Shown one piece after another: positions 7,968 to 29,346 of a stretch of 34,298 nucleotides of DNA. The stretch's first letter is position 1. Each line of letters opens with the position of its first letter. The notes below the pieces were generated by a model, which saw only the letters and a program-made list of their open reading frames with translations, made no database searches and was not told where the DNA came from. The DNA is from an uncultured Bacilli bacterium (lineage in GTDB: Bacteria > Bacillota_I > Bacilli_A > RF39 > UBA660). The DNA lies in assembly GCA_944351765.1 (NCBI GenBank), contig CALVPR010000014.1, positions 1-34,298 on the forward strand, written 5' to 3'. Made by a program: the position numbers and the translations under genes.

Positions 7968-8858
7968 TTATTCATTATTAAAGTCTTTAAATCCAATTTC
8001 ATTTAATATTTTATCTTTATCACGCCATTTAGGTATTACTTTAACAAATAAATCTAAATAAACTTTTTTATTTAATAACTCTTCGATATCTTTTCTAGCT
8101 CTAATTCCTATTTCTTTTATCATACTTCCATTTTTACCAATAATTATCTTTTTTAAATTATCTCTATCCACTATAATAGATGCATTGATTATAATGGTGT
8201 TGTTGTCTTCTTCAATATTTTCGACAATACAAGTAGTAGAATGTGGAACTTCTTCATTAGTAAGTTCTAATACTTTTTCTCTAATATATTCACTTATCAT
8301 GAAAGTAACATCTACATTAGTAATTGTATTATCATCAAAATATCTTATTGTATCTGGCAAATATTTTTTCAATACATCTATTAAGTGATTCACATTTTCT
8401 CTTTTTAATGCTGAAACAGGAACTATTTCATCAAAATTATATAAATCTTTATACTCATCTATTTTTATTAATATTTCTTCTTTAGGAAGTTTATCTATTT
8501 TGTTTAAAATTAATATTACTGGCTTATTAATATTTTTAAACATTTCTATTATAAATTTATCTCCTGGCCCTAACTTTTCAGTAATATCTACTAGAAATAA
8601 AATAATATCAACATCATTTATTGAAAAGAATGCTTGTTTATTTAATACCTTTCCTAATTTATGCTTAGGTTTATGAATTCCTGGAGTATCTACAAAAACC
8701 ATTTGATAGTCTCCATCAGTATATATTCCTTGTATATTATTTCTTGTTGTTTGAGGTTTATTTGAAGTAATTGCCACTTTTCTTCCGATTATACTATTTA
8801 ATAATGTGCTTTTTCCAACATTAGGTCTTCCTACTAATCCAATAAATCCACTTTTCAT
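7968..8858 (-). CDS. era: GTPase Era
   Basis: Essential GTPase that binds the 3' end of 16S rRNA during 30S assembly. All G motifs are visible: G1 GRPNVGKST, G2 around NKPQTTRNN, G3 DTPGIHKPKH, G4 NKID and G5 PVSALK. The C-terminal KH domain holds IVDRDNLKKIIIGKNGSMIKEIG-type residues (GKNGSMIK is the KH GxxG loop). The frame extends to a GTG three codons upstream, but GGGTGG sits correctly for the ATG at 8858, giving 296 aa. It is in the ybeY-dgkA-cdd-era-recO string typical of Bacilli. Confidence 0.97.
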   Translation of the reverse strand: MKSGFIGLVGRPNVGKSTLLNSIIGRKVAITSNKPQTTRNNIQGIYTDGDYQMVFVDTPGIHKPKHKLGKVLNKQAFFSINDVDIILFLVDITEKLGPGDKFIIEMFKNINKPVILILNKIDKLPKEEILIKIDEYKDLYNFDEIVPVSALKRENVNHLIDVLKKYLPDTIRYFDDNTITNVDVTFMISEYIREKVLELTNEEVPHSTTCIVENIEEDNNTIIINASIIVDRDNLKKIIIGKNGSMIKEIGIRARKDIEELLNKKVYLDLFVKVIPKWRDKDKILNEIGFKDFNNE

Positions 8859-8872
8859 AAAAACCACCCTTA

Positions 8873-14130: not shown

Positions 14131-14166
14131 ATAATCCACCCTTTCCTAATTAAAGGTATGAAAAAA

Positions 14167-14184
14167 GAGTAATTAATATTACTC
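14167..14184 (-). terminator. Intrinsic terminator of addA
   Basis: GAGTAAT (14167-14173) pairs with ATTACTC (14178-14184) around a 4-nt loop, followed on the minus strand by TTTTTT. It overlaps the addA stop and separates addBA from spoVID. Confidence 0.9.
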
Positions 14185-17100
14185 AATTTTTAAAATTACT
14201 GAATCTATAATAGAATATAAATATAAAGATACTGGTTTACCACTATTACTTCTTACAAATTCTTGGTAACCTTTTAACTGTAAAATATATTTATCATCAT
14301 CAACATTCTTTAATTTATAGTCAACAATATCAATATGATCATCATATTCTAACATTAAATCAATTATGCCATGATATTTAGTATCATCTTTAACATATAC
14401 AAATTCATATTCTTTGTATATTTTAGCATCCTTAATATTTTTAAATAAATCACTATTTACTAACTTATCTATCTTTTCTTGATAGAAATAATTATCTAGT
14501 TTAGTCATATTCTTAAAATCTGTATTTTCTAATATTTCATGCATTTTTAAACCTAGTTCAATATTATTTTTAGTTTCCATATCTATAAGTTCATGCATCT
14601 TTTTAGAAAAACTACTACTTTCTATTTCTATATTACTAATGTTTATATTTTTAACATCCAATTTTGTATCATTTTTAGAAATACTACTTTCAAAGTTACC
14701 TGATGCAATAATATTATAATCCTTAGACATTTTCAGTTTATCTAGTTCTACCTTAGTAATATAACTATCAAGTCTATTTCTAATCGAATATATTAAATCA
14801 CCAAGAGTACGATAACCTTCTTTTTTCTCATCTTTCAAAACTACTTCATTATCTAAATCATCTATATCTTTATTAGGTAAAACTACTACCATTTTTTCTT
14901 TAGCACGAGTTACCGCAACATAAAAAAGTCTTATTTTTTCAGAAATTTCTTCTAATAAATAATCATTTTTTAATAACGTTTTATATATTGTTTCACCAAT
15001 TCCTTCATCAAAAAATGGTGTAACTATTCCTATTTTATTATTATATAAAAATTTTTCATTTAATTCACCAAGATTAAATCTTTTATACATATTAGGAAAA
15101 TAACAAACATGATATTCAAGCCCTTTTGATTTATGAATAGTCATTATTTTAACAGCATCTCCAAAATCATTATTTACCTGATACTTCATAGTATAATTTT
15201 CTTTAACTAATTTATCCAAGTGTTCTGAAAACATTATTGGAGTATACCCTAACGTACCTAAAGAATTAGCCATATCTAATATTTTATCAATTTTAATTAT
15301 ACTAGTATCTATATTTCCTATTGTTATTAATTTTTCATAAAAGTCAAATTCTTTTATAATTATATTTAGTAGTTCGTTAACAGAAATATTGTTAATCTTT
15401 TTACTTATTTCATAACTTTTCTTATATAACTCATTATCTTTAAAGTTATTATTTAAAAAGTATTTAAAAATATTATCATCTGTCTCATTAATTATAAAAC
15501 TACGCATTAGACTTACAAATAAATATTTGAATGTTGTATCATATTCGTGATTAGCTATTTTTATAACAAATTTAAGTAAATTATTTAAAACATAAACATC
15601 CTTATCATTATTCATTTTTTCTTCTTTTAAAATATTCAAAGGTATTTGTTTATATTCAAAAATTTTCTTAAATAAATCAAAAGTAGAGGATCTATCTATT
15701 AATATCGCAAAATCACTATATTTTATATCTCTAAGGATCAGTTCATCTTTATCAAACACTTGATAATGGGATTCTACTTTCTTTTTTATATCATCGGCAA
15801 TTATAAAACATTCTATTTCTTCCATAGTAAATCCACTATCTTTATCATAGTCGTATTCTAATATATCTATATTATAATTTTGATTAGTATTTCCTTCATT
15901 TATATAAGCATTATTTCCAAATACCATTTGATGTGTACTTATATAATCGGCTCCCCCAATTAAATCACTCATAATTAAATTAAACATCAAATTAACATTA
16001 TCAAGTACTTCTCTTCTCGATCTAAAGTTTTTATTTAAATCTATTTTAATACCACCATTATTTACAGAATAATTATCATATTTATTTTTAAATATATTAG
16101 GGTTAGCATTTCTAAAACGATATATTGATTGTTTAATGTCCCCAACCATATAAACATTATTATTAGATATATAACTTATAAATTCTTCCTGCAAATCATT
16201 AGTATCCTGATACTCATCTATCATTATTTCGTTAAAACTATTCTTTACTTCTTCTCTAACTTCAGGAAACTCTCTTACTAATTTTATCGATAATAAAGCT
16301 ATATCATTAAACTCATACGCATCATTATCAAATTTAAATTTGTTTACTTTATCATCAAATTCTAAAATTATATCAATAATAGCTCTAATATAATCTTTAG
16401 TAAGTAAAATAGTATTTTTTATGTACTCTACATTTTCATATACACACATTTTTCCTAAATTCTTTATAACATCACTAAGTTTTTCTTTAACTTTTTTACC
16501 TTCATCACTAGTTCCTTTAGGAATTCTAGGGATAGACACACTTAAGGAATCTTTTAGTTCATCATAAGTATTAGCATTTAATAACTTATCTAATGCATTA
16601 TATAAATTATTCATATAGTCACTATCAAAATAACTAGATAATTCATTACATATTCCTTCTATTTTATCTCTTTCTTTTTTTATTAAATCCACATACTTAT
16701 TAACATCTTTTTCTATTTTTTCTAAAGTAAAATTTGTTTTTATATAATTAGATAAGTATTCTTTTTTGTTTGGTAGCATATCTAATTTATTACTTATTGC
16801 TAATATTTCTTTTTGAATATTTTTATCATCTTTAACACAAAAATCATCTATTAAATGTAGAAACAATTTATCTTCAATCAAATATTTATTTTCAAATATT
16901 TCATTCATTATTTCTTCTTTTTTTATAGCTATAACTGCTTCATCTATTATATTAACGTTAGGAGATATATTTAATAAATAATGATACTTTTTTACTATGG
17001 ATAAAGCAAAACTATCAAACGTTGTTATATAAGAAGCATCTATCATATCAAGTTCTGAAAGCAAATCTTCTTCTTTGGTAATTTTTTTTCTAATTCTTTG

Positions 17101-17292
17101 TTTCATTTCAGCTGCAGCAGCTTTAGTAAATGTTAAAAGTAATAGTTCATTAATATGTACTCCACCTTTTAATTTACGAATAACTCTTTCACTTAAAACA
17201 GCAGTTTTTCCAGAACCTGCTCCTGCACTAACGATAATATTACTTCCTTCTTCGTTAATTGCTAAACTTTGTTCTTTTGTCCAACTAGGCAT
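14179..17292 (-). CDS. addA: ATP-dependent helicase/nuclease subunit A
   Basis: Superfamily 1A (UvrD-like) 3'-5' helicase plus RecB-family nuclease of the AddAB double-strand-break resection complex. Visible in order: Q-motif and Walker A (SAGAGSGKT near residue 28), the Ia motif LLTFTKAAAAEMKQRI, the DEXX box MIDEYQDTNDLQ, GDIKQSIYRFRNANP, FRSR, TIHKSKGLEY and LFYVAVTRAKEK. The C-terminal nuclease has GIIDLMLEYDDHIDIVDYKLK (GxxD...DYK). 1037 aa versus about 1230 in B. subtilis, so somewhat compact. The ATG at 17292 with GGAGGTG is the start; it overlaps addB by 8 nt. Confidence 0.97.
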   Translation of the reverse strand: MPSWTKEQSLAINEEGSNIIVSAGAGSGKTAVLSERVIRKLKGGVHINELLLLTFTKAAAAEMKQRIRKKITKEEDLLSELDMIDASYITTFDSFALSIVKKYHYLLNISPNVNIIDEAVIAIKKEEIMNEIFENKYLIEDKLFLHLIDDFCVKDDKNIQKEILAISNKLDMLPNKKEYLSNYIKTNFTLEKIEKDVNKYVDLIKKERDKIEGICNELSSYFDSDYMNNLYNALDKLLNANTYDELKDSLSVSIPRIPKGTSDEGKKVKEKLSDVIKNLGKMCVYENVEYIKNTILLTKDYIRAIIDIILEFDDKVNKFKFDNDAYEFNDIALLSIKLVREFPEVREEVKNSFNEIMIDEYQDTNDLQEEFISYISNNNVYMVGDIKQSIYRFRNANPNIFKNKYDNYSVNNGGIKIDLNKNFRSRREVLDNVNLMFNLIMSDLIGGADYISTHQMVFGNNAYINEGNTNQNYNIDILEYDYDKDSGFTMEEIECFIIADDIKKKVESHYQVFDKDELILRDIKYSDFAILIDRSSTFDLFKKIFEYKQIPLNILKEEKMNNDKDVYVLNNLLKFVIKIANHEYDTTFKYLFVSLMRSFIINETDDNIFKYFLNNNFKDNELYKKSYEISKKINNISVNELLNIIIKEFDFYEKLITIGNIDTSIIKIDKILDMANSLGTLGYTPIMFSEHLDKLVKENYTMKYQVNNDFGDAVKIMTIHKSKGLEYHVCYFPNMYKRFNLGELNEKFLYNNKIGIVTPFFDEGIGETIYKTLLKNDYLLEEISEKIRLFYVAVTRAKEKMVVVLPNKDIDDLDNEVVLKDEKKEGYRTLGDLIYSIRNRLDSYITKVELDKLKMSKDYNIIASGNFESSISKNDTKLDVKNINISNIEIESSSFSKKMHELIDMETKNNIELGLKMHEILENTDFKNMTKLDNYFYQEKIDKLVNSDLFKNIKDAKIYKEYEFVYVKDDTKYHGIIDLMLEYDDHIDIVDYKLKNVDDDKYILQLKGYQEFVRSNSGKPVSLYLYSIIDSVILKIE

Positions 17293-19666
17293 CAGTTTCA
17301 CCTCCTAAAAATTCGGCATTTTTATATTCTTTTAATTCTACTATATCTTTTTGTTCCATATAACATATATCATTAAAATTACAATATTTACATCCAATGT
17401 TTTCTTTACCAATTTTTTTAGGATTTATATCAAATGAAACATCTAAAATATTATCTCTCGCTTCTTCTATTTTTTTATCAACTAAATTAATTAAACTATC
17501 AATTTGTTCATTATTAATAATTTTAGAATAACTATAAAATCCTGTTTTAGTTGTTTTTAAAGATTTAATCATATTACTATTGTCATAACTATCATCAAGT
17601 TCTCTTAATATTTCTGTATTATCATTACTATACCCTTGAAGTTTTAGCCCATCTTCTAACAAACTAGTATATGTGTGTTTATAATCTTTAAATATTTCTT
17701 TATTTAATATTTTTTGTAAATAAAATCCCGCTATTTCTACATTACTTATTTTCTCCATATTTTTACTTAAATACAAATATACAGGTAATTGAAGTCCTAA
17801 TCCATAAATAGCATTATTAATATTAATATCAGGATTTCCCGTTTTATAATCAATAATACAAACAATAGTATTATTACCTTTTTCTTCATATAATACTTTG
17901 TCGATTATGCCGTTAAAAGTTACTTTTACTGTACCACTTTTATCTACACGAACTTTTTCTTCATACATGGCTTTATTTAAGCTAGTATATTTATATTGTT
18001 TTTTTATTGTATCAATAACAAATTTTAAATCTTCCTTTGCTTTTTTTATGAAGTATAATTCCTTATTAGAAAACTCAAATGTTTGTTTTTCTAAAAAATT
18101 ATTATATTCTTTATCTAAGTCAAATTCTTCCGTAAATGCTTTTGACAACACTTCATGAAATAAAGTACCTAAAATAGTCATAAATGTTTCTTCATAAGGA
18201 TTTAATTTTAAAATATTATTTAAATAATATCTAAATCCACATTTAAAATAATTATCCATACTAGTATAAGACAAAGATAATTCATTTTTTATGTATTTAG
18301 CAAATTCTTCTTTATCTATCTTTTTATAATCATTACTATATTCTAAATAATTTATATCTTTATAATTATTATATAATAGTGATAAATCTTTATCTTTTAC
18401 ACCAAACTTTACTAATTTATCAATATTTGATGCTAATTTTATTTTATTTGCTTTATCAGAATAAGTATAAAATAATTTGTCTTCTTTTATTATTTCGAGT
18501 TTTAATTCATCATTTAAATTAGAAACAGTATAACTTTCTGTATTATTTGATAATTTATAAGTAATTATTAAATTTTTAATATTATTTATTTTAGAAATAA
18601 CATATTCTTTTTCCGTTTTATTTTTAATTGTAGAAGTCATTAAACCTAACCCTAATTTTAATTTATCACTTAAATATTCTTCATCTTTGTATATTGTTGG
18701 AATACTACCATAGTTAAATCCCATTATAAAAATATAATTATCATCATCTACTTCATTATCAAAACTAATTAATTTAACACTATTTTTAAGTTCTTTTGTC
18801 TTTATATTAGTATTTTTCATATCATGAATAATTAATTCTTTTACTTCCGATAAGTTGTTTGCCCATACATATTTATTACAAATATTTATTAATTTATTAA
18901 TAATATCAACATTATCTTCGTTATCATCAAATTTATTTTTAATATTATCAAATATACTATCACCATTAATATTTTCTAAAAAGTAATTACCTATTTCTGT
19001 ACTATAAATACTTCCTTCATTAGGTAACGATACAGGTATATTATAAATTTCTGAATATCTTTTCATTATTCCATAATAGTCATTAGTAAGTCCCATTATT
19101 TTTATATTATTTATATCTATACCTTTATTTATTAAATCCGCAATATGCTCAAACACATACTCTACTTCATCTTTAATTGTCTTAAATTCATATATATTTT
19201 TATGTTTATACTTTGGTTTTAATATAGAAACAATATTTATATTATCACTTAATTTTTCTAACATTCTTTTGTCAAAGTCACTAATAAAATGATATCCATA
19301 TACAATAATTTTCTTATTTTTATATTCGTTATATAGACTAGTAACATTTAATTTATTATCTACTATTTCTTTTTTGATATCTAATATTTTTGTTATTTTT
19401 TGATCTTTAACTTCATTATCACTAACATAAACAATATTATCTAAATATATTTTAGCAACATCATATTTTATATTATATTTATTTATCAAATAAAATATTG
19501 CTTTTTCATCATAATCAAATATAACTTTTCTTCTTAATTCTTCTAATGAAATATATTTAATATTTGTAAGGGGTTTTTCTTTTGTTACTGTAGTTATTAC
19601 TTCTTCTTTAATACTATTCGGAATAACTAAAACAGTATCATCTTCAATATAGTCTAGATAACTCAC
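17285..19666 (-). CDS. addB: ATP-dependent nuclease subunit B, short form
   Basis: Partner of AddA. The N-terminal two thirds have a degenerate helicase outline with no Walker A, as some AddB proteins do. The C-terminal nuclease domain has LSYTSMDNYFKCGFRYYL, GTLFHEVL, the GIIDKV...IIDYKTG catalytic core and an iron-sulfur cluster tail with C-x2-C-x5-C (NIGCKYCNFNDICY) pairing with the Cys of YFKCGF. 793 aa is far shorter than B. subtilis AddB (about 1166), mainly in the helicase part. It starts with GTG overlapping the antitoxin stop by 4 nt, so it is probably translated by coupling from the toxin-antitoxin transcript. Confidence 0.92.
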   Translation of the reverse strand: MSYLDYIEDDTVLVIPNSIKEEVITTVTKEKPLTNIKYISLEELRRKVIFDYDEKAIFYLINKYNIKYDVAKIYLDNIVYVSDNEVKDQKITKILDIKKEIVDNKLNVTSLYNEYKNKKIIVYGYHFISDFDKRMLEKLSDNINIVSILKPKYKHKNIYEFKTIKDEVEYVFEHIADLINKGIDINNIKIMGLTNDYYGIMKRYSEIYNIPVSLPNEGSIYSTEIGNYFLENINGDSIFDNIKNKFDDNEDNVDIINKLINICNKYVWANNLSEVKELIIHDMKNTNIKTKELKNSVKLISFDNEVDDDNYIFIMGFNYGSIPTIYKDEEYLSDKLKLGLGLMTSTIKNKTEKEYVISKINNIKNLIITYKLSNNTESYTVSNLNDELKLEIIKEDKLFYTYSDKANKIKLASNIDKLVKFGVKDKDLSLLYNNYKDINYLEYSNDYKKIDKEEFAKYIKNELSLSYTSMDNYFKCGFRYYLNNILKLNPYEETFMTILGTLFHEVLSKAFTEEFDLDKEYNNFLEKQTFEFSNKELYFIKKAKEDLKFVIDTIKKQYKYTSLNKAMYEEKVRVDKSGTVKVTFNGIIDKVLYEEKGNNTIVCIIDYKTGNPDININNAIYGLGLQLPVYLYLSKNMEKISNVEIAGFYLQKILNKEIFKDYKHTYTSLLEDGLKLQGYSNDNTEILRELDDSYDNSNMIKSLKTTKTGFYSYSKIINNEQIDSLINLVDKKIEEARDNILDVSFDINPKKIGKENIGCKYCNFNDICYMEQKDIVELKEYKNAEFLGGETDA

Positions 19667-20670
19667 TTATTATCACCATCCATAATTTCTTTAAATATTG
19701 AACTAGCATATTTAGATATATCAGATACATCTTTCATTTTATATTTCTTACCTATATTAGTAAAATAATCTTTCATAGTATCAGTATCAATAATATTTGA
19801 TGAATACTCTTCTTCACTTAATTCTTTTCTTCCTTCTTCCCAAGGAATAGTAATATGTGTCATTTTCTCTAATGTTTTACCACTGTAAACACCAAAATTA
19901 TTTATAACCGAATCTATTAATTTAATTTCTTTTTCACTTAAAGAATCTATCTCGTTATAACTTTCAAATTCATTTTTAGAAATAGGATTATATCTATAAT
20001 AACTAAATCTATCATAAATTTCTCTATAAACTGGTCCATGTACCCAAGCTTCTGCATTATCATTAAATATAGGGTTATCAAAGAAATAAGTAGAAAATCC
20101 CTGAATATAATATAATATTTTTTGAAGAGCAAGTGGCGTTATATCTTCCATCTTTGCAATAATATGTTTAGATATTAAATATATTTTAGATTGATCTTCT
20201 GTTAATTTAAGTTCCATAATTTTACCAAGCGTCTTCTTATATGCTACTTTTGTTATTAAATCTTTATTTTTTTCTAAATATTCATATAAAGTATTAGGAT
20301 CTTCCAATACTTTTTTTAATATATCGGAATACGCTTTTTCTGGAGTACTTCCTTCTAAATATCTAATAATTGTTACTTCTCCCCACCCCAAAACTAGAGA
20401 AAGTGGCTTTTTCCCTATCGCATATTTATTTAATATTTCTTCTATTTCTTTTATAGTAATAATACCATTAATCTCTTTTACTTTTTCTGAATATTCTAAC
20501 ATATTTTGATCATATAATTTCTCTACATAAACTTCGTTATTACATTTTTTACAAATAGCATACAATTCATTAAACGACACTATTTTGTTATTAATCATTT
20601 CTTCTTTTATTCTTTTTCTTATTTTATATTCCACTAATTCATTACATATTTCACAAAAAGTTTTACTCAC
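19663..20670 (-). CDS. MqsA-like antitoxin fused to a Panacea (DUF4065) domain
   Basis: 335-aa three-part protein. Residues 1-50: zinc-ribbon with C6-x2-C9 and C40-x2-C43, as in MqsA/YgiT. Residues 70-150: Xre/MqsA-type helix-turn-helix (LSLVLGWGEVTIIRYLEGSTP, then a VLEDPNTLYEYL helix like that of MqsA). Residues 160-310: Panacea/SocA-like domain (ALQKILYYIQGFSTYF, AWVHGPVYREIYDRF). Panacea domains neutralise many unrelated toxins (PanA of PanAT systems) and also occur as protease adaptors (SocA). It lies 13 nt after the MqsR-like toxin, has a GTG start with GGGAGATGAT, and overlaps addB by 4 nt. The HTH suggests autoregulation of the shared promoter. Confidence 0.88.
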   Translation of the reverse strand: MSKTFCEICNELVEYKIRKRIKEEMINNKIVSFNELYAICKKCNNEVYVEKLYDQNMLEYSEKVKEINGIITIKEIEEILNKYAIGKKPLSLVLGWGEVTIIRYLEGSTPEKAYSDILKKVLEDPNTLYEYLEKNKDLITKVAYKKTLGKIMELKLTEDQSKIYLISKHIIAKMEDITPLALQKILYYIQGFSTYFFDNPIFNDNAEAWVHGPVYREIYDRFSYYRYNPISKNEFESYNEIDSLSEKEIKLIDSVINNFGVYSGKTLEKMTHITIPWEEGRKELSEEEYSSNIIDTDTMKDYFTNIGKKYKMKDVSDISKYASSIFKEIMDGDNK

Positions 20671-20683
20671 TTATATCATCTCC

Positions 20684-21076
20684 CTATATAAACATATATT
20701 TTAAATTATGAAGTGCTTCATGAAATGAAACAACAATCGCTGTTCTCTTGACTTCAATATAATTAATCTTCAAATATACTTGCATATCTTGTCTTTGTCC
20801 TTTTAAATCAATAAGTTTAAGTTTTGGAGCAAATACATATAATTTCTCATTTTCATATCCTGGATGTTCATTGGGAAGTACCAATGAAAAATCTTCTACT
20901 GTAAGTCTGTTTATAATATTTTTAAGTATCTTACTATTTATAGCATAATTCTTACAAAATTCTAAATTCTTTCCACGATTAGATAAAACAAGATATCCAT
21001 TAGTAGTGATATTCTTTTTTATCTTTTGCAAAAGTATTTCTACTTCTTCTTTTGTTACTTCACATACTAAATTCAA
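20684..21076 (-). CDS. MqsR-like mRNA interferase toxin (putative)
   Basis: About 130 aa. Its central pattern, ILKNIINRLTVEDFSLVLP, and a C-terminal strand pair, QVYLKINY then IVVSFHEA, line up with MqsR (IxxxIxSLTxxDFYKS; VYLKLTV; VIVSFKE). MqsR has a RelE-like fold and cleaves mRNA at GCU. The identification is from memory of the family but is strengthened by the MqsA-like partner immediately downstream. The frame opens with GTG at 21085; TTG at 21074-21076 lies 6 nt after GGAAGTG and is the better start. The promoter at 21101-21129 gives a leader of only about 20 nt. Confidence 0.72.
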   Translation of the reverse strand: MNLVCEVTKEEVEILLQKIKKNITTNGYLVLSNRGKNLEFCKNYAINSKILKNIINRLTVEDFSLVLPNEHPGYENEKLYVFAPKLKLIDLKGQRQDMQVYLKINYIEVKRTAIVVSFHEALHNLKYMFI

Positions 21077-21100
21077 GAATATCACTTCCTATCTGTATTC

Positions 21101-21129
21101 ATTATAACACGTACAAATATTCACGTCAA
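21101..21129 (-). promoter_or_regulatory. Promoter of toxin-antitoxin-addB-addA unit
   Basis: Minus strand: TTGACG (21124-21129), 17-nt spacer, TATAAT (21101-21106). Two ACGTG copies, one overlapping the -35 and one in the spacer just before the -10, are candidate operator half-sites for the antitoxin HTH. No other promoter was seen before addB or addA. Confidence 0.8.
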
Positions 21130-21131
21130 TA

Positions 21132-21159
21132 AAAAATAGTATCATTTGACACTATTTTT
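21132..21159 (-). terminator. Intrinsic terminator of the metallopeptidase gene
   Basis: 12-bp stem: AAAAATAGTATC (21132-21143) with GACACTATTTTT (21148-21159), one G-U, 4-nt loop, then TTTTTTATT on the minus strand. It insulates the toxin-antitoxin promoter from upstream transcription. Confidence 0.88.
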
Positions 21160-21985
21160 GTTTTCTTGAATTTAATTTTTCATTATACTCATCAATAATA
21201 GAATATACTTGTGAGTAATCTATATTTTTATAAAATAATATTTTCTTAAAGATTCCTAAAATATTATTAAACTCTTTCATATGTGAATAATACTTAAAAT
21301 AGAACTCTCTTTCAGCAATTTCATATACTTTAATATATAATTCTGCTATATCATCTCCTAAATTTTCTCTTAAATATGCAATCTCATTTTTCCTGCTTTT
21401 CATAAAAGCAAGTCTCTTTATTGTATCTTCACCCATTATTTCCATTAATTTATAACATAATTTTACTTCTTTAGGATAACCACAAGAACTTGTTCTTAAA
21501 TTATATTTTTGAGCAAGCATTCTTGTTAATAATTCTACCATTCCCTCTTTTAATACGCTTGAACCATCTCCGCCACAAAAATGCATTGTTTCATGTAAAA
21601 GCAAATCATCATAATACCCCTTAGCATCCGTTCCACTTATAAATACATGTAATAAATATGTGCCAAAGCCATTATTATTTAAAACTGTTGTATTCTCATT
21701 ATAAGTTTTATGCTTTCTATTAATTCCATAACCAGGAATTTTACTTGCCATATTTAACACTTTATCAGCACATAGTGGCATACTTATTTGTTCATTATCA
21801 GCATAAGCATTTATTTGACCATAATCATAAATTTTTATTATTTGTTTATAGTCAATTATAGCATTAAGTTGTTCTAATAAATCAGGAGAAATATATTCCC
21901 CATATTCTTTAATTATTAATTTAATATATAATTCTACTTTAGATGCTAAATAAGTCTGTGTTTCTTCTATATTTAAGTTTCCCAT
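21152..21985 (-). CDS. Putative zinc metallopeptidase (HExxH), family unknown
   Basis: 277-aa soluble protein with a gluzincin-like site: HETMH near residue 133 followed by GGDGSSVLKEGMVELLTRM, where the second Glu (KEGMVE) could be the third zinc ligand. There is no signal peptide, so it probably acts in the cytoplasm. I do not recognise a named family. The ATG at 21985 has AGGAGG 9 nt ahead; the ATG nine bases upstream directly abuts the site and is not used. It is 13 nt downstream of the YnbB-like gene, so the two form an operon. Confidence 0.7.
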   Translation of the reverse strand: MGNLNIEETQTYLASKVELYIKLIIKEYGEYISPDLLEQLNAIIDYKQIIKIYDYGQINAYADNEQISMPLCADKVLNMASKIPGYGINRKHKTYNENTTVLNNNGFGTYLLHVFISGTDAKGYYDDLLLHETMHFCGGDGSSVLKEGMVELLTRMLAQKYNLRTSSCGYPKEVKLCYKLMEIMGEDTIKRLAFMKSRKNEIAYLRENLGDDIAELYIKVYEIAEREFYFKYYSHMKEFNNILGIFKKILFYKNIDYSQVYSIIDEYNEKLNSRKQK

Positions 21986-21998
21986 AAATAACATCCTC

Positions 21999-26968: not shown

Positions 26969-28252
26969 TTAAATATGGTGTATTTTTTTAAAAAGTTTTT
27001 TGGTATATTCACAATTATTTTTATCTATATCATAGATAGAGCCATTTAAATTGTAAGAACCTGTTGCACATCCACCACCACAAGAAATTACACTACTACA
27101 ATTTAAACATTCAGAATTGTCAAAACGAGACCTGCTTTTCCAACATTCCCAGTTTTGATTTGACATATAATCGTCATTCAATGTATCCATATAATTTTGC
27201 TTTACTTTTTCTAAGGCTTGACAAGCATATACTTTTCCGTCAGGAAATACTGTTATTTTTCTCGAACTACCACAAGATCCTTTTGATATAGTTTTGTCTA
27301 TTCCTAATAAACGATTATATAATTCAACAAAAGCGTAGTCATTTGCAATATTCCCATAATTATTGTATGCTTTAAGCATTTCAGTTGCTAATTTTTCAGT
27401 ATATTCATCACTTATTGCAAATGAATTTGTTATTAAAACATTTACAGCAAAATCATCTATTCCTAATTCTGATACAATAGAATATAATCTTTCAGAAAAG
27501 TTATCAATATTATCGTCAGTTGCAGTTATCATTGGCAAAACTTTAACGCCTTTGTCTAAAAGTTTTTTAATATTATCCATAACAACTTGATATGTTGGTT
27601 CACCATATTGAGTTTTCCTATGCAAATCGTGTTTGTCTTTATCTCCATCTAGTGAAACTTGAACTTCTACATTATTATTTTTAAATAAGTTTATATCTTC
27701 ATCTTCTAAAAGTGTAGCATTAGTATTTATTACTAAATTAGTTGAAGTGTCAAATAGTTCTCTTGTAAAAGGAATTGCTTGATATAACATTTTTTTATTT
27801 AATAATGGTTCACCACCATAAAAAGTAACTTGTTGCCAATAATAATCATCTTTTATATTTGACTCCACTATTTTTTTAAAATCAAGCAATGCTTTTTTTG
27901 CTATTTGATACTCCATATTTTGTCTATGTTTTAACGAATTAGAAGCACTACTTCTATAAAAACAATAATCACAATCAAGATTACAAGCAGTAGATGATAT
28001 TAAATATAAAGATTGTATTTGTTTATCTCTTGTTATTTTTTTTAAATTACTAATCAAAAGTTTTTCACTTTCTTCTGTTGTTATAATATTTTGCTTTAAT
28101 AAATTGCTTGGTAATTCAATTTCACTACTAATTTGTTTGTCTTTATAATACTTTATAAATTCTATTTCATCTTGTGATAATTTTAAAAATTCTTTTGTTA
28201 ACGCGTTCCAAACTCTATTATCATATATTTGTATAAATGTTGATATTTTCAT
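26969..28252 (-). CDS. Radical SAM/SPASM peptide maturase with N-terminal recognition-type domain
   Basis: 427 aa. Residues 1-85 precede the radical SAM core and have the style of the N-terminal domain of SPASM peptide maturases (WNALTKEFLKLSQDEIEF), possibly the precursor-binding part. Core: C90-x3-C94-x2-C97 (ACNLDCDYC) for the SAM-binding 4Fe-4S, the GGEP motif (FYGGEPL) and INTNAT. The C-terminal SPASM region has CGSSRKITVFPDGKVYAC, then C-x2-C (ECLNC), SCGGGC and a final Cys, enough for two auxiliary clusters. Such enzymes install C-C or thioether crosslinks in RiPPs. It begins 2 nt after the other radical SAM gene with no strong Shine-Dalgarno, so it is probably translationally coupled. 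Confidence 0.92.
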   Translation of the reverse strand: MKISTFIQIYDNRVWNALTKEFLKLSQDEIEFIKYYKDKQISSEIELPSNLLKQNIITTEESEKLLISNLKKITRDKQIQSLYLISSTACNLDCDYCFYRSSASNSLKHRQNMEYQIAKKALLDFKKIVESNIKDDYYWQQVTFYGGEPLLNKKMLYQAIPFTRELFDTSTNLVINTNATLLEDEDINLFKNNNVEVQVSLDGDKDKHDLHRKTQYGEPTYQVVMDNIKKLLDKGVKVLPMITATDDNIDNFSERLYSIVSELGIDDFAVNVLITNSFAISDEYTEKLATEMLKAYNNYGNIANDYAFVELYNRLLGIDKTISKGSCGSSRKITVFPDGKVYACQALEKVKQNYMDTLNDDYMSNQNWECWKSRSRFDNSECLNCSSVISCGGGCATGSYNLNGSIYDIDKNNCEYTKKLFKKIHHI

Positions 28253-28254
28253 AT

Positions 28255-29346
28255 TTAACCATTATATGTGCAATCTTTTGTTTCATCTTCCATTGCATAA
28301 TTAGGAAATTTTCCTAAATTATATACATTTTGGCATTCAGGATCTGGTGCATAGAAATCTCCATTATATTTCATCATTGAATGTAATCTACAACCACCAC
28401 GACATAAACTTCTTGCCAAACAATTTCCACATATTCCTTTTAATTTATTTGGATTTAATTCCTTAAATTTTTGTAATTTTTTATTTTCTTCCCATATTTT
28501 AGAAATAGAGTTTTTTCTCACATTATCAAAAATAAACATATCATTGTCTGAACCAACGTGACATAAAGCAACATTTCCAGAATAACCAACGCCTAACATA
28601 CCTTTTCCCCAAGGACATAAACTATGTTGATAAATATCAATTGGAATTATTGCTGTATTTAATTCAACAGATAAATTTTTATCTTCCTTATGTTTCCTTA
28701 AAAAATCATAATAAAAATTATCCATTAATTGTTGAATTTTAAAATAATTAACAGCTTCTGTTTCATTAGCTTCAATGCCTTTTCCATATTCAATTATATT
28801 TGGTAAGAGCCTAAAACCTAACCCTAATCGTTCATGAATTGTAGTTGCCAATTCAGGTATTTCATTATAATTATTTTTACTTAACACAGTAATTATTCTC
28901 AAAGGAATATTATATTTTCTAATAATGTTAATAGTTTTAAAAGTCCTATCAAAAGAACCATTTCCTCTCGTTAAATCATTTGTCTCTTTTTTTATACCAT
29001 CCAAACTAATTGACAGTGATAAATGTTCTTTAAATTTTGACAAATATTCTATTTGTTCCTCCGTTATTATAGTACCATTTGTTTCAATGCTAACATCTAA
29101 TCCCAAATTAATTGTTCTTTCTATGATTTCTAATATATCTTTTCTACAAAATATTTCTCCACCTGTCATATTAACTTTTTTTAATCCTACTGACATAGCA
29201 TCCTTAAATATTTCAATCCATTCATTTGATGATAATTCTAATTTAGCACAAGAATTATCTTTATTTTCGTTTCTTCCACAATAAACACATTTTAAATTGC
29301 ATCTATTTGTAAGTAATACCGCTAAAACTTCTAAATTACTTTCCAT
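28255..29346 (-). CDS. Radical SAM/SPASM enzyme, putative RiPP maturase
   Basis: 363 aa. C16-x3-C20-x2-C23 (CNLKCVYC), MTGGEIF in place of GGEP, ETNGT, and SISLDGIKKETND are the radical SAM core. The C-terminal third is SPASM-like: CPWGKGMLGVGYSGNVALCHV, then C-x2-C (CGNC), SLCRGGCR and a last Cys. It lacks the N-terminal extension of its neighbour. The enzyme class includes PqqE, MftC and many peptide-modifying enzymes. It follows the peptide gene at 29403-29480, separated by a hairpin, and has TGGAGGT 5 nt before its ATG. The reaction cannot be read from the sequence. Confidence 0.92.
   Translation of the reverse strand: MESNLEVLAVLLTNRCNLKCVYCGRNENKDNSCAKLELSSNEWIEIFKDAMSVGLKKVNMTGGEIFCRKDILEIIERTINLGLDVSIETNGTIITEEQIEYLSKFKEHLSLSISLDGIKKETNDLTRGNGSFDRTFKTINIIRKYNIPLRIITVLSKNNYNEIPELATTIHERLGLGFRLLPNIIEYGKGIEANETEAVNYFKIQQLMDNFYYDFLRKHKEDKNLSVELNTAIIPIDIYQHSLCPWGKGMLGVGYSGNVALCHVGSDNDMFIFDNVRKNSISKIWEENKKLQKFKELNPNKLKGICGNCLARSLCRGGCRLHSMMKYNGDFYAPDPECQNVYNLGKFPNYAMEDETKDCTYNG

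What the first reader, a model, noticed from the sequence alone, without database searches (positions are those of the whole stretch)
14179..21129. addB-addA placed in a toxin-antitoxin operon
Toxin, antitoxin, addB and addA follow one promoter; gaps are 13 nt, -4 nt and -8 nt and no other promoter is seen. If the antitoxin's HTH represses this promoter, the level of the main double-strand-break resection enzyme would depend on toxin-antitoxin state, linking break repair and phage-DNA degradation to a growth-arrest switch.
Basis: partly seen in the sequence, partly recalled or inferred. Interest (0 to 1): 0.6.

Follow-up and report, generated by a model that had tools for sequence, protein, structure and literature searches.

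The report
Antitoxin promoter drives DNA-break repair genes
In a group of small gut bacteria the genes for the main DNA-break repair enzyme (AddAB) sit in one operon behind a toxin-antitoxin pair, and a distant relative has lost the toxin but kept the antitoxin's DNA-binding half and its binding site in front of the same repair genes, so the antitoxin probably acts as a switch for DNA repair.

Summary
On the minus strand an MqsR-like toxin, an MqsA/Panacea antitoxin (PanA: zinc domain, HTH, Panacea), addB and addA follow one near-consensus promoter. The gaps are 13, -4 and -8 nt, and hairpins bracket the unit.

New here:
(1) A palindrome just upstream of the -35 box (21138-21153, unique in this genome) matches an operator found before MqsR-PanA pairs across Firmicutes. 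Its form varies with the PanA recognition helix.
(2) The order is identical in five congeneric species, all four genes under purifying selection. Two other species of the genus have lyase-addB-addA without the pair, so the pair was inserted.
(3) A separate lineage (roe-deer Bacilli MAG RGIG4757) has an HTH-Panacea protein directly before addBA, with the same recognition helix and operator. It has no toxin and no zinc domain, the part shown elsewhere to neutralise MqsR. Its nearest AddB relatives lack PanA, and AddAB trees reject common descent with the window's clade, so the linkage probably arose twice.

Best reading: PanA is an operator-binding regulator recruited to addBA, in one clade still armed with its toxin. 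The sign of regulation, the trigger and any internal promoter are untested. General coupling is not supported: most addBA operons lack PanA.

The parts
21138..21153 (-). predicted PanA operator AGTGTCAAATGATACT, centred about 16 bp upstream of the -35 box
   Evidence: Matches the GTATCN4GATAC / TGYRYYAATTRRYRCA motif upstream of MqsR-PanA pairs (45/65 loci with <=2 mismatches to the family consensus against 0.9 in shuffles; the window's own site has 1 mismatch to GTATCN4GATAC); only site of its kind in the genome; form follows the HTH recognition helix
21132..21159 (-). hairpin with T-run that contains the operator; probable terminator of the upstream gene
   Evidence: -11.1 kcal/mol, z -3.6; supplies the TAG stop of whichever gene lies upstream in four of the species
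21101..21129 (-). sigma-70-type promoter TTGACG-17-TATAAT with TG extension
   Evidence: 11/12 match, best of the region; boxes conserved in five species including G005, whose spacer diverged
20684..21076 (-). MqsR-like toxin (130 aa, TTG start)
   Evidence: AlphaFold pLDDT 91.9; dN/dS 0.06-0.14
19663..20670 (-). PanA antitoxin: zinc domain (C6, C9, C40, C43), HTH, Panacea domain
   Evidence: profile matches E. coli MqsA structures 3gn5/3o9x and 2kz8; dN/dS 0.06-0.09
17285..19666 (-). addB (793 aa), start overlaps the antitoxin stop by 4 nt
   Evidence: PDDEXK 2.5e-24, TIGR02773; junction invariant in five species
14179..17292 (-). addA (1037 aa from ATG), start overlaps the addB stop by 8 nt
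   Evidence: UvrD-helicase 4.5e-53, TIGR02785 2.3e-133
14161..14184 (-). hairpin plus T-run overlapping the addA stop, probable operon terminator
   Evidence: -7.7 kcal/mol, z -3.8

Best explanation
The four genes form one transcription unit that starts at the promoter at 21129-21101 and ends at the hairpin after addA. The PanA antitoxin (zinc domain, HTH, Panacea) binds the palindrome just upstream of the -35 box and autoregulates the unit, so the amount of AddAB is tied to the state of PanA. When PanA is inactivated, or its Panacea domain is triggered by an unknown cue, the MqsR-like RNase would be freed and transcription of toxin, antitoxin and AddAB would change together, most likely rising. 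The pair was inserted between a PLP-lyase gene and addB in the ancestor of five species and replaced read-through from the lyase. In a separate lineage a PanA without toxin or zinc domain controls addBA alone, so what is retained across both lineages is PanA-dependent control of addBA, not the toxin. Shown: gene order, conservation, operator motif and its covariation with the HTH, purifying selection, the toxin-free case, the separate AddAB ancestry. Inferred: binding, the sign of regulation, toxin activity, the trigger.
For: Gene layout and promoter; same order and same junctions in five species; TA absent in congeners G003/G006, where lyase and addB are about 20 nt apart; the DNA upstream of the pair varies (280-aa gene, lyase, or about 330 nt of other DNA) while the TA-addB junction is invariant; family-wide operator in 45/65 loci against 0.9 expected, unique in this genome, varying with the recognition helix, with helix and operator type shared by L117 and the window; dN/dS of toxin and antitoxin at or below that of addB with broadly similar dS; L117 HTH-Panacea protein 15 nt before addB, operator plus TTGACA-17-TACAAT, no toxin found in its genome; nearest AddB relatives of L117 lack PanA; AU test p 7e-11 against one origin of the linked AddAB. 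For the related B. fungorum MqsR:PanA the zinc domain neutralises, HTH-Panacea does not, and Panacea is proposed as a sensor (PMC10440598).
Against: No expression or binding data. Internal promoters cannot be excluded, and E. coli mqsA has two constitutive promoters of its own (PMC6918082). The operator lies upstream of the -35 box, so repression is not assured. Only two lineages carry the link and one of them is a single MAG. The toxin fold search found no strong PDB match.
Confidence: 0.62

Rival explanations
1. Passive insertion: a mobile TA pair landed in front of addBA in one ancestor. Its own addiction keeps it there, and the co-transcription is incidental with no role in DNA repair.
For: MqsR-PanA pairs elsewhere sit in variable regions without addBA; only one genus carries the full pair before addBA; congeners do without it.
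Against: Addiction cannot explain L117, which has no toxin and no zinc domain yet keeps HTH, Panacea, operator and position. Two independent placements before the same operon are unlikely: about 7/1200, or 0.6%, among the other PanA lineages of the family, and about 4-6% if all ~75 relatives read are counted (rough estimate, inference).
Confidence: 0.25
2. Decoupled expression: the promoter serves the toxin, while internal promoters in the toxin or antitoxin gene drive antitoxin and addBA constitutively, as for mqsA in E. coli.
For: Precedent in E. coli mqsRA (PMC6918082); candidates such as TTAACA-16-TATATT at 20205-20178 and ATGATA-17-TATAAT at 20015-19987 exist.
Against: Internal candidates are no more frequent than in shuffles, and their conservation is no more than the coding sequence explains; in L117 the operator promoter stands directly before PanA-addBA.
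Confidence: 0.2
3. Guard system: Panacea, or PanA as a whole, senses AddAB or its inhibition by a phage protein and frees the toxin, making an abortive-infection back-up like retrons that guard RecBCD.
For: Panacea is proposed as a TA-activating sensor (PMC10440598); AddAB/RecBCD is a known phage target (general knowledge); shared operon.
Against: No interaction evidence; in L117 there is no toxin to release; toxin and antitoxin match no defence model.
Confidence: 0.1

Closest known systems
MqsR(D2):PanA type II TA of Bacillus fungorum and L. rossiae (zinc domain-HTH-Panacea antitoxin; PMC10440598, PMC8832971)
   Same: Toxin gene first, antitoxin with the same three domains, MqsR-like toxin with an invariant Tyr/Lys/His set
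   Different: Here addB and addA follow in the same operon with overlapping starts; relatives elsewhere are two-gene units, and of the 72 relatives with >1 kb of downstream sequence only the five of this finding are followed by addBA
E. coli MqsRA
   Same: Toxin-first order; MqsA zinc and HTH parts (3gn5/3o9x matched); palindromic operator
   Different: Operator is of the GTATCN4GATAC type, not AACCTN3AGGTT (PMC4894380); Panacea domain added; no addBA; E. coli MqsA has been found not to be a global regulator (PMC6918082)
addBA operon of other Bacilli of this family
   Same: addB-addA order and short overlap
   Different: Others follow unrelated genes or their own promoters without the PanA operator
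Retron Ec48 guarding RecBCD (general knowledge)
   Same: Toxin module tied to the break-resection nuclease
   Different: There the link is protein-level sensing; here only shared transcription is indicated

Membership tests
MqsR-PanA (zinc domain-HTH-Panacea) type II TA | Panacea domain above the curated cut-off | tested here: met
   PF13274 81.3 bits, cut-off 25.7
MqsR-PanA (zinc domain-HTH-Panacea) type II TA | MqsA-type zinc and HTH half with two CxxC motifs | tested here: met
   TIGR03830 61.1 bits against cut-off 61.8, just below; C6, C9, C40, C43 invariant; matches MqsA structures 3gn5/2kz8
MqsR-PanA (zinc domain-HTH-Panacea) type II TA | MqsR-fold toxin | tested here: inconclusive
   Window toxin below the Pfam cut-off (16.8 against 26.2), 15 of 53 homologues match at E<=0.05; fold search weak, RelE at E 0.35
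MqsR-PanA (zinc domain-HTH-Panacea) type II TA | Toxicity and neutralisation | not testable with these tools
   Needs an expression assay
MqsR-PanA (zinc domain-HTH-Panacea) type II TA | Autoregulatory operator in front of the operon | tested here: met
   Motif in 45/65 loci against 0.9 expected; present in window and L117; binding not tested
AddAB helicase-nuclease | AddA UvrD helicase and nuclease, AddB PD-(D/E)XK nuclease, adjacent genes | tested here: met
   AddB is short (793 aa), as in the whole family, and both are below the Gram-positive equivalog cut-offs
Anti-phage guard system (retron-like) | Toxin released on inhibition of the guarded nuclease | not testable with these tools
   No data; toxin and antitoxin match no PADLOC model

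The most novel reading that the evidence does not exclude
HTH-Panacea antitoxins have been recruited at least twice as sensor-regulators of the break-repair and phage-DNA-degrading enzyme AddAB: once with the MqsR toxin kept as part of the response, once after loss of the toxin and of the neutralising zinc domain. Panacea's unknown cue would then be a DNA-damage or phage signal.
Probability: 0.33. Interest if true: 0.78.

Novelty: new variant of a known kind. Interest (0 to 1): 0.62.

Why it matters
The cue that activates Panacea antitoxins is unknown. A natural operon in which a Panacea protein without its toxin controls AddAB offers a direct way to look for that cue among DNA-break and phage signals. 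It would also be a case of an antitoxin turned regulator of a core repair enzyme, with the intermediate (toxin kept) and the end state (toxin lost) both present in living relatives.

Tried and rejected
PDB search with the toxin profile and fold search with its model gave no strong match. I considered that the TA-addBA link was ancestral and lost elsewhere: not formally excluded, but it would need losses in G003/G006, G086 and the nearest relatives of L117, and the AU test rejects L117 AddAB as sister of the five species. I considered that addB upstream regions without PanA might carry the operator: they do not. I looked for more toxin-free PanA-addBA cases in 386 family and 385 order genomes and 60 relatives of L117; none besides L117 and the window genus was found among the full-length hits. 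L152/G595 has a close PanA but its contig ends 200 nt downstream, without addB. Literature searches for AddAB with toxin-antitoxin found no prior report in their hit lists.

Full report
OBSERVATION. The window is contig C14 of a 1.29-Mb, 93% complete genome; its closest named relatives are uncultured Bacilli MAGs. AddA has the UvrD helicase domains and matches TIGR02785; AddB has a PDDEXK nuclease and matches TIGR02773. The antitoxin joins an MqsA-type zinc/HTH half (TIGR03830) to a SocA/Panacea domain, and its profile matches the solved E. coli MqsA structures 3gn5/3o9x and 2kz8. The toxin is MqsR-like: weak for the window protein (0.0095), but 15 of 53 aligned proteins match, the best at 4.8e-6. 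N37, F63, Y101, K103, S117 and H119 are invariant. Its predicted structure is confident (pLDDT 91.9) but has no strong PDB match.

TRANSCRIPTION UNIT. One promoter stands out: TTGACG-17-TATAAT with a TG extension at 21129-21101, 11/12. The number of promoter-like hits in the region equals that of shuffled sequence (78 against 77.9), so sequence alone neither shows nor excludes internal promoters. Hairpins with T-runs lie upstream of the promoter (-11.1 kcal/mol) and over the addA stop codon (-7.7 kcal/mol), both about 3.6-3.8 sd below shuffles.

OPERATOR. The upstream hairpin contains AGTGTCAAATGATACT, eight bases before the -35 box. Comparable palindromes stand before the pairs of G005, G043 and G144 although these sequences are otherwise different. 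In 65 upstream regions of MqsR-PanA loci, mostly from across Firmicutes, the motif TGYRYYAATTRRYRCA occurs with at most two mismatches in 45, against 0.9 in dinucleotide shuffles. GTATCN4GATAC with at most one mismatch occurs in 22, against 0.2; the window's site is of this second kind. It is absent upstream of 30 addB genes without a pair, and the stricter form AGTRTCN4GAYACT occurs once in the window's genome, at 21138-21153. The form of the site follows the HTH recognition helix: helices of the type EVT(I/L)IRY go with AGTATC-type sites, M/Q-TFSRY mostly with TGCA or TGTA(C/T), G/T-TLTRY mostly with TGTATT. This identifies the palindrome as the likely PanA operator; binding itself was not tested.

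CONSERVATION. Five species of the genus (G000, G001, G002, G004, G005) have all four genes in this order, with the same GTGA/ATGA overlap. Toxin and antitoxin have dN/dS of 0.06-0.14 and 0.06-0.09, at or below addB (0.11-0.18) and near addA (0.07-0.10), with broadly similar dS; this fits vertical descent of the block under purifying selection. Two further species of the genus, G003 and G006, have lyase-addB-addA-spoVID-ysxE with about 20 nt between lyase and addB and no pair, so the pair was most likely inserted there and brought its own promoter. What lies upstream of the pair differs (a 280-aa gene in G000/G001, the lyase in G002/G004, about 330 nt of other DNA in G005) while the TA-addB junction is invariant. 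The other addBA loci read (some 35) lack it, and no other family or order genome searched has a full-length PanA next to addB.

THE TOXIN-FREE CASE. Among the 80 closest PanA loci in a collection of 85,000 species genomes, the first after the genus itself, L117 (JAFURK010000022.1, Bacilli bacterium RGIG4757, roe-deer rectum), has a 265-aa HTH-Panacea protein 57% identical to the window's, beginning where the HTH begins. It matches only positions 62-118 of the 127-position MqsA model. addB follows after 15 nt and addA overlaps addB. No toxin precedes it, and none was found in its genome. Its recognition helix is the same as the window's (KPLSLVLGWGEVTIIRYLEG), and its promoter is AGTATCACTTGATACT, 9 nt, TTGACA, 17 nt, TACAAT. 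In the related B. fungorum system the zinc domain neutralises MqsR, while HTH-Panacea does not, and Panacea is proposed to be a sensor (PMC10440598). So the L117 protein is probably a regulator, not an antitoxin.

INDEPENDENCE. In a PanA tree L117, L152 and the window's five group together (92/90). In a tree of concatenated AddB and AddA the five species are one clade (100/100) with G052, then G003/G006 as relatives, and L117 lies outside; holding L117 with the five is rejected (AU p 7e-11). The closest AddB relatives of L117 (67% to 48% identical) have no PanA upstream of addB where this could be read. Two separate placements of sister PanA proteins directly before addBA are the simplest account. 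A rough chance estimate: with about eight PanA lineages in the family and about 1200 genes per genome, one of the other seven would land directly before addB with probability near 0.6%; counting all ~75 relatives read raises this to about 4-6%. These are rough inferences, not tests.

MECHANISM. Most likely PanA binds its operator and sets the level of toxin, antitoxin and AddAB together; loss or triggering of PanA frees the RNase and changes AddAB output. Shown: architecture, conservation, selection, operator motif, toxin-free recurrence. Inferred: binding, sign of regulation, toxin activity, trigger. The operator is upstream of the -35 box, so repression is likely by analogy with MqsA but not assured. 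Caution is due because E. coli mqsA is transcribed from its own promoters and its claimed global role was not reproduced (PMC6918082).

NOVELTY. The TA is a member of a known kind (MqsR-PanA). Its extension to an addBA operon, and the toxin-free HTH-Panacea-addBA form, are a new variant as far as the literature searches here show.

Noticed in passing
window 21152-21994: 280-aa protein with an HExxH-like motif (LLHETMHF), no Pfam or NCBIfam match, present in G000 and G001 but absent at this place from the congeners G002, G004 and G005: a variable insertion just upstream of the TA pair.
   Followed up: partly
L069 about 8500-8860 (G005): About 330 nt of unrelated DNA with an inverted-repeat stretch between lyase and TA pair, in a species that lacks the 280-aa gene there.
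   Followed up: no
L226 3049-7711 (G245): A distant MqsR-PanA pair inserted between what looks like mfd and a spoVT-like gene, in a cluster with pth, metS and tatD-like genes: another TA pair inside a repair/housekeeping gene cluster.
   Followed up: no
L264 2619-3269 (G452): A MerR-like regulator gene sits between addB and addA; G029 (L074) and G044 (L102) have other small genes at the same place.
   Followed up: partly
window 17285-19666 and relatives: AddB is about 770-820 aa in most of the family, against about 1160-1200 in other Bacilli, and the best match to the AddB model covers only the C-terminal part.
   Followed up: no
window 26969-29346: Two adjacent radical-SAM genes (one with SPASM), with an arginase-like gene just upstream; could be a peptide-modification cluster.
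   Followed up: no
L119, L129, L172: PanA proteins whose upstream toxin my ORF search did not recover; some sit next to polysaccharide-synthesis genes or other small co-directional genes.
   Followed up: partly
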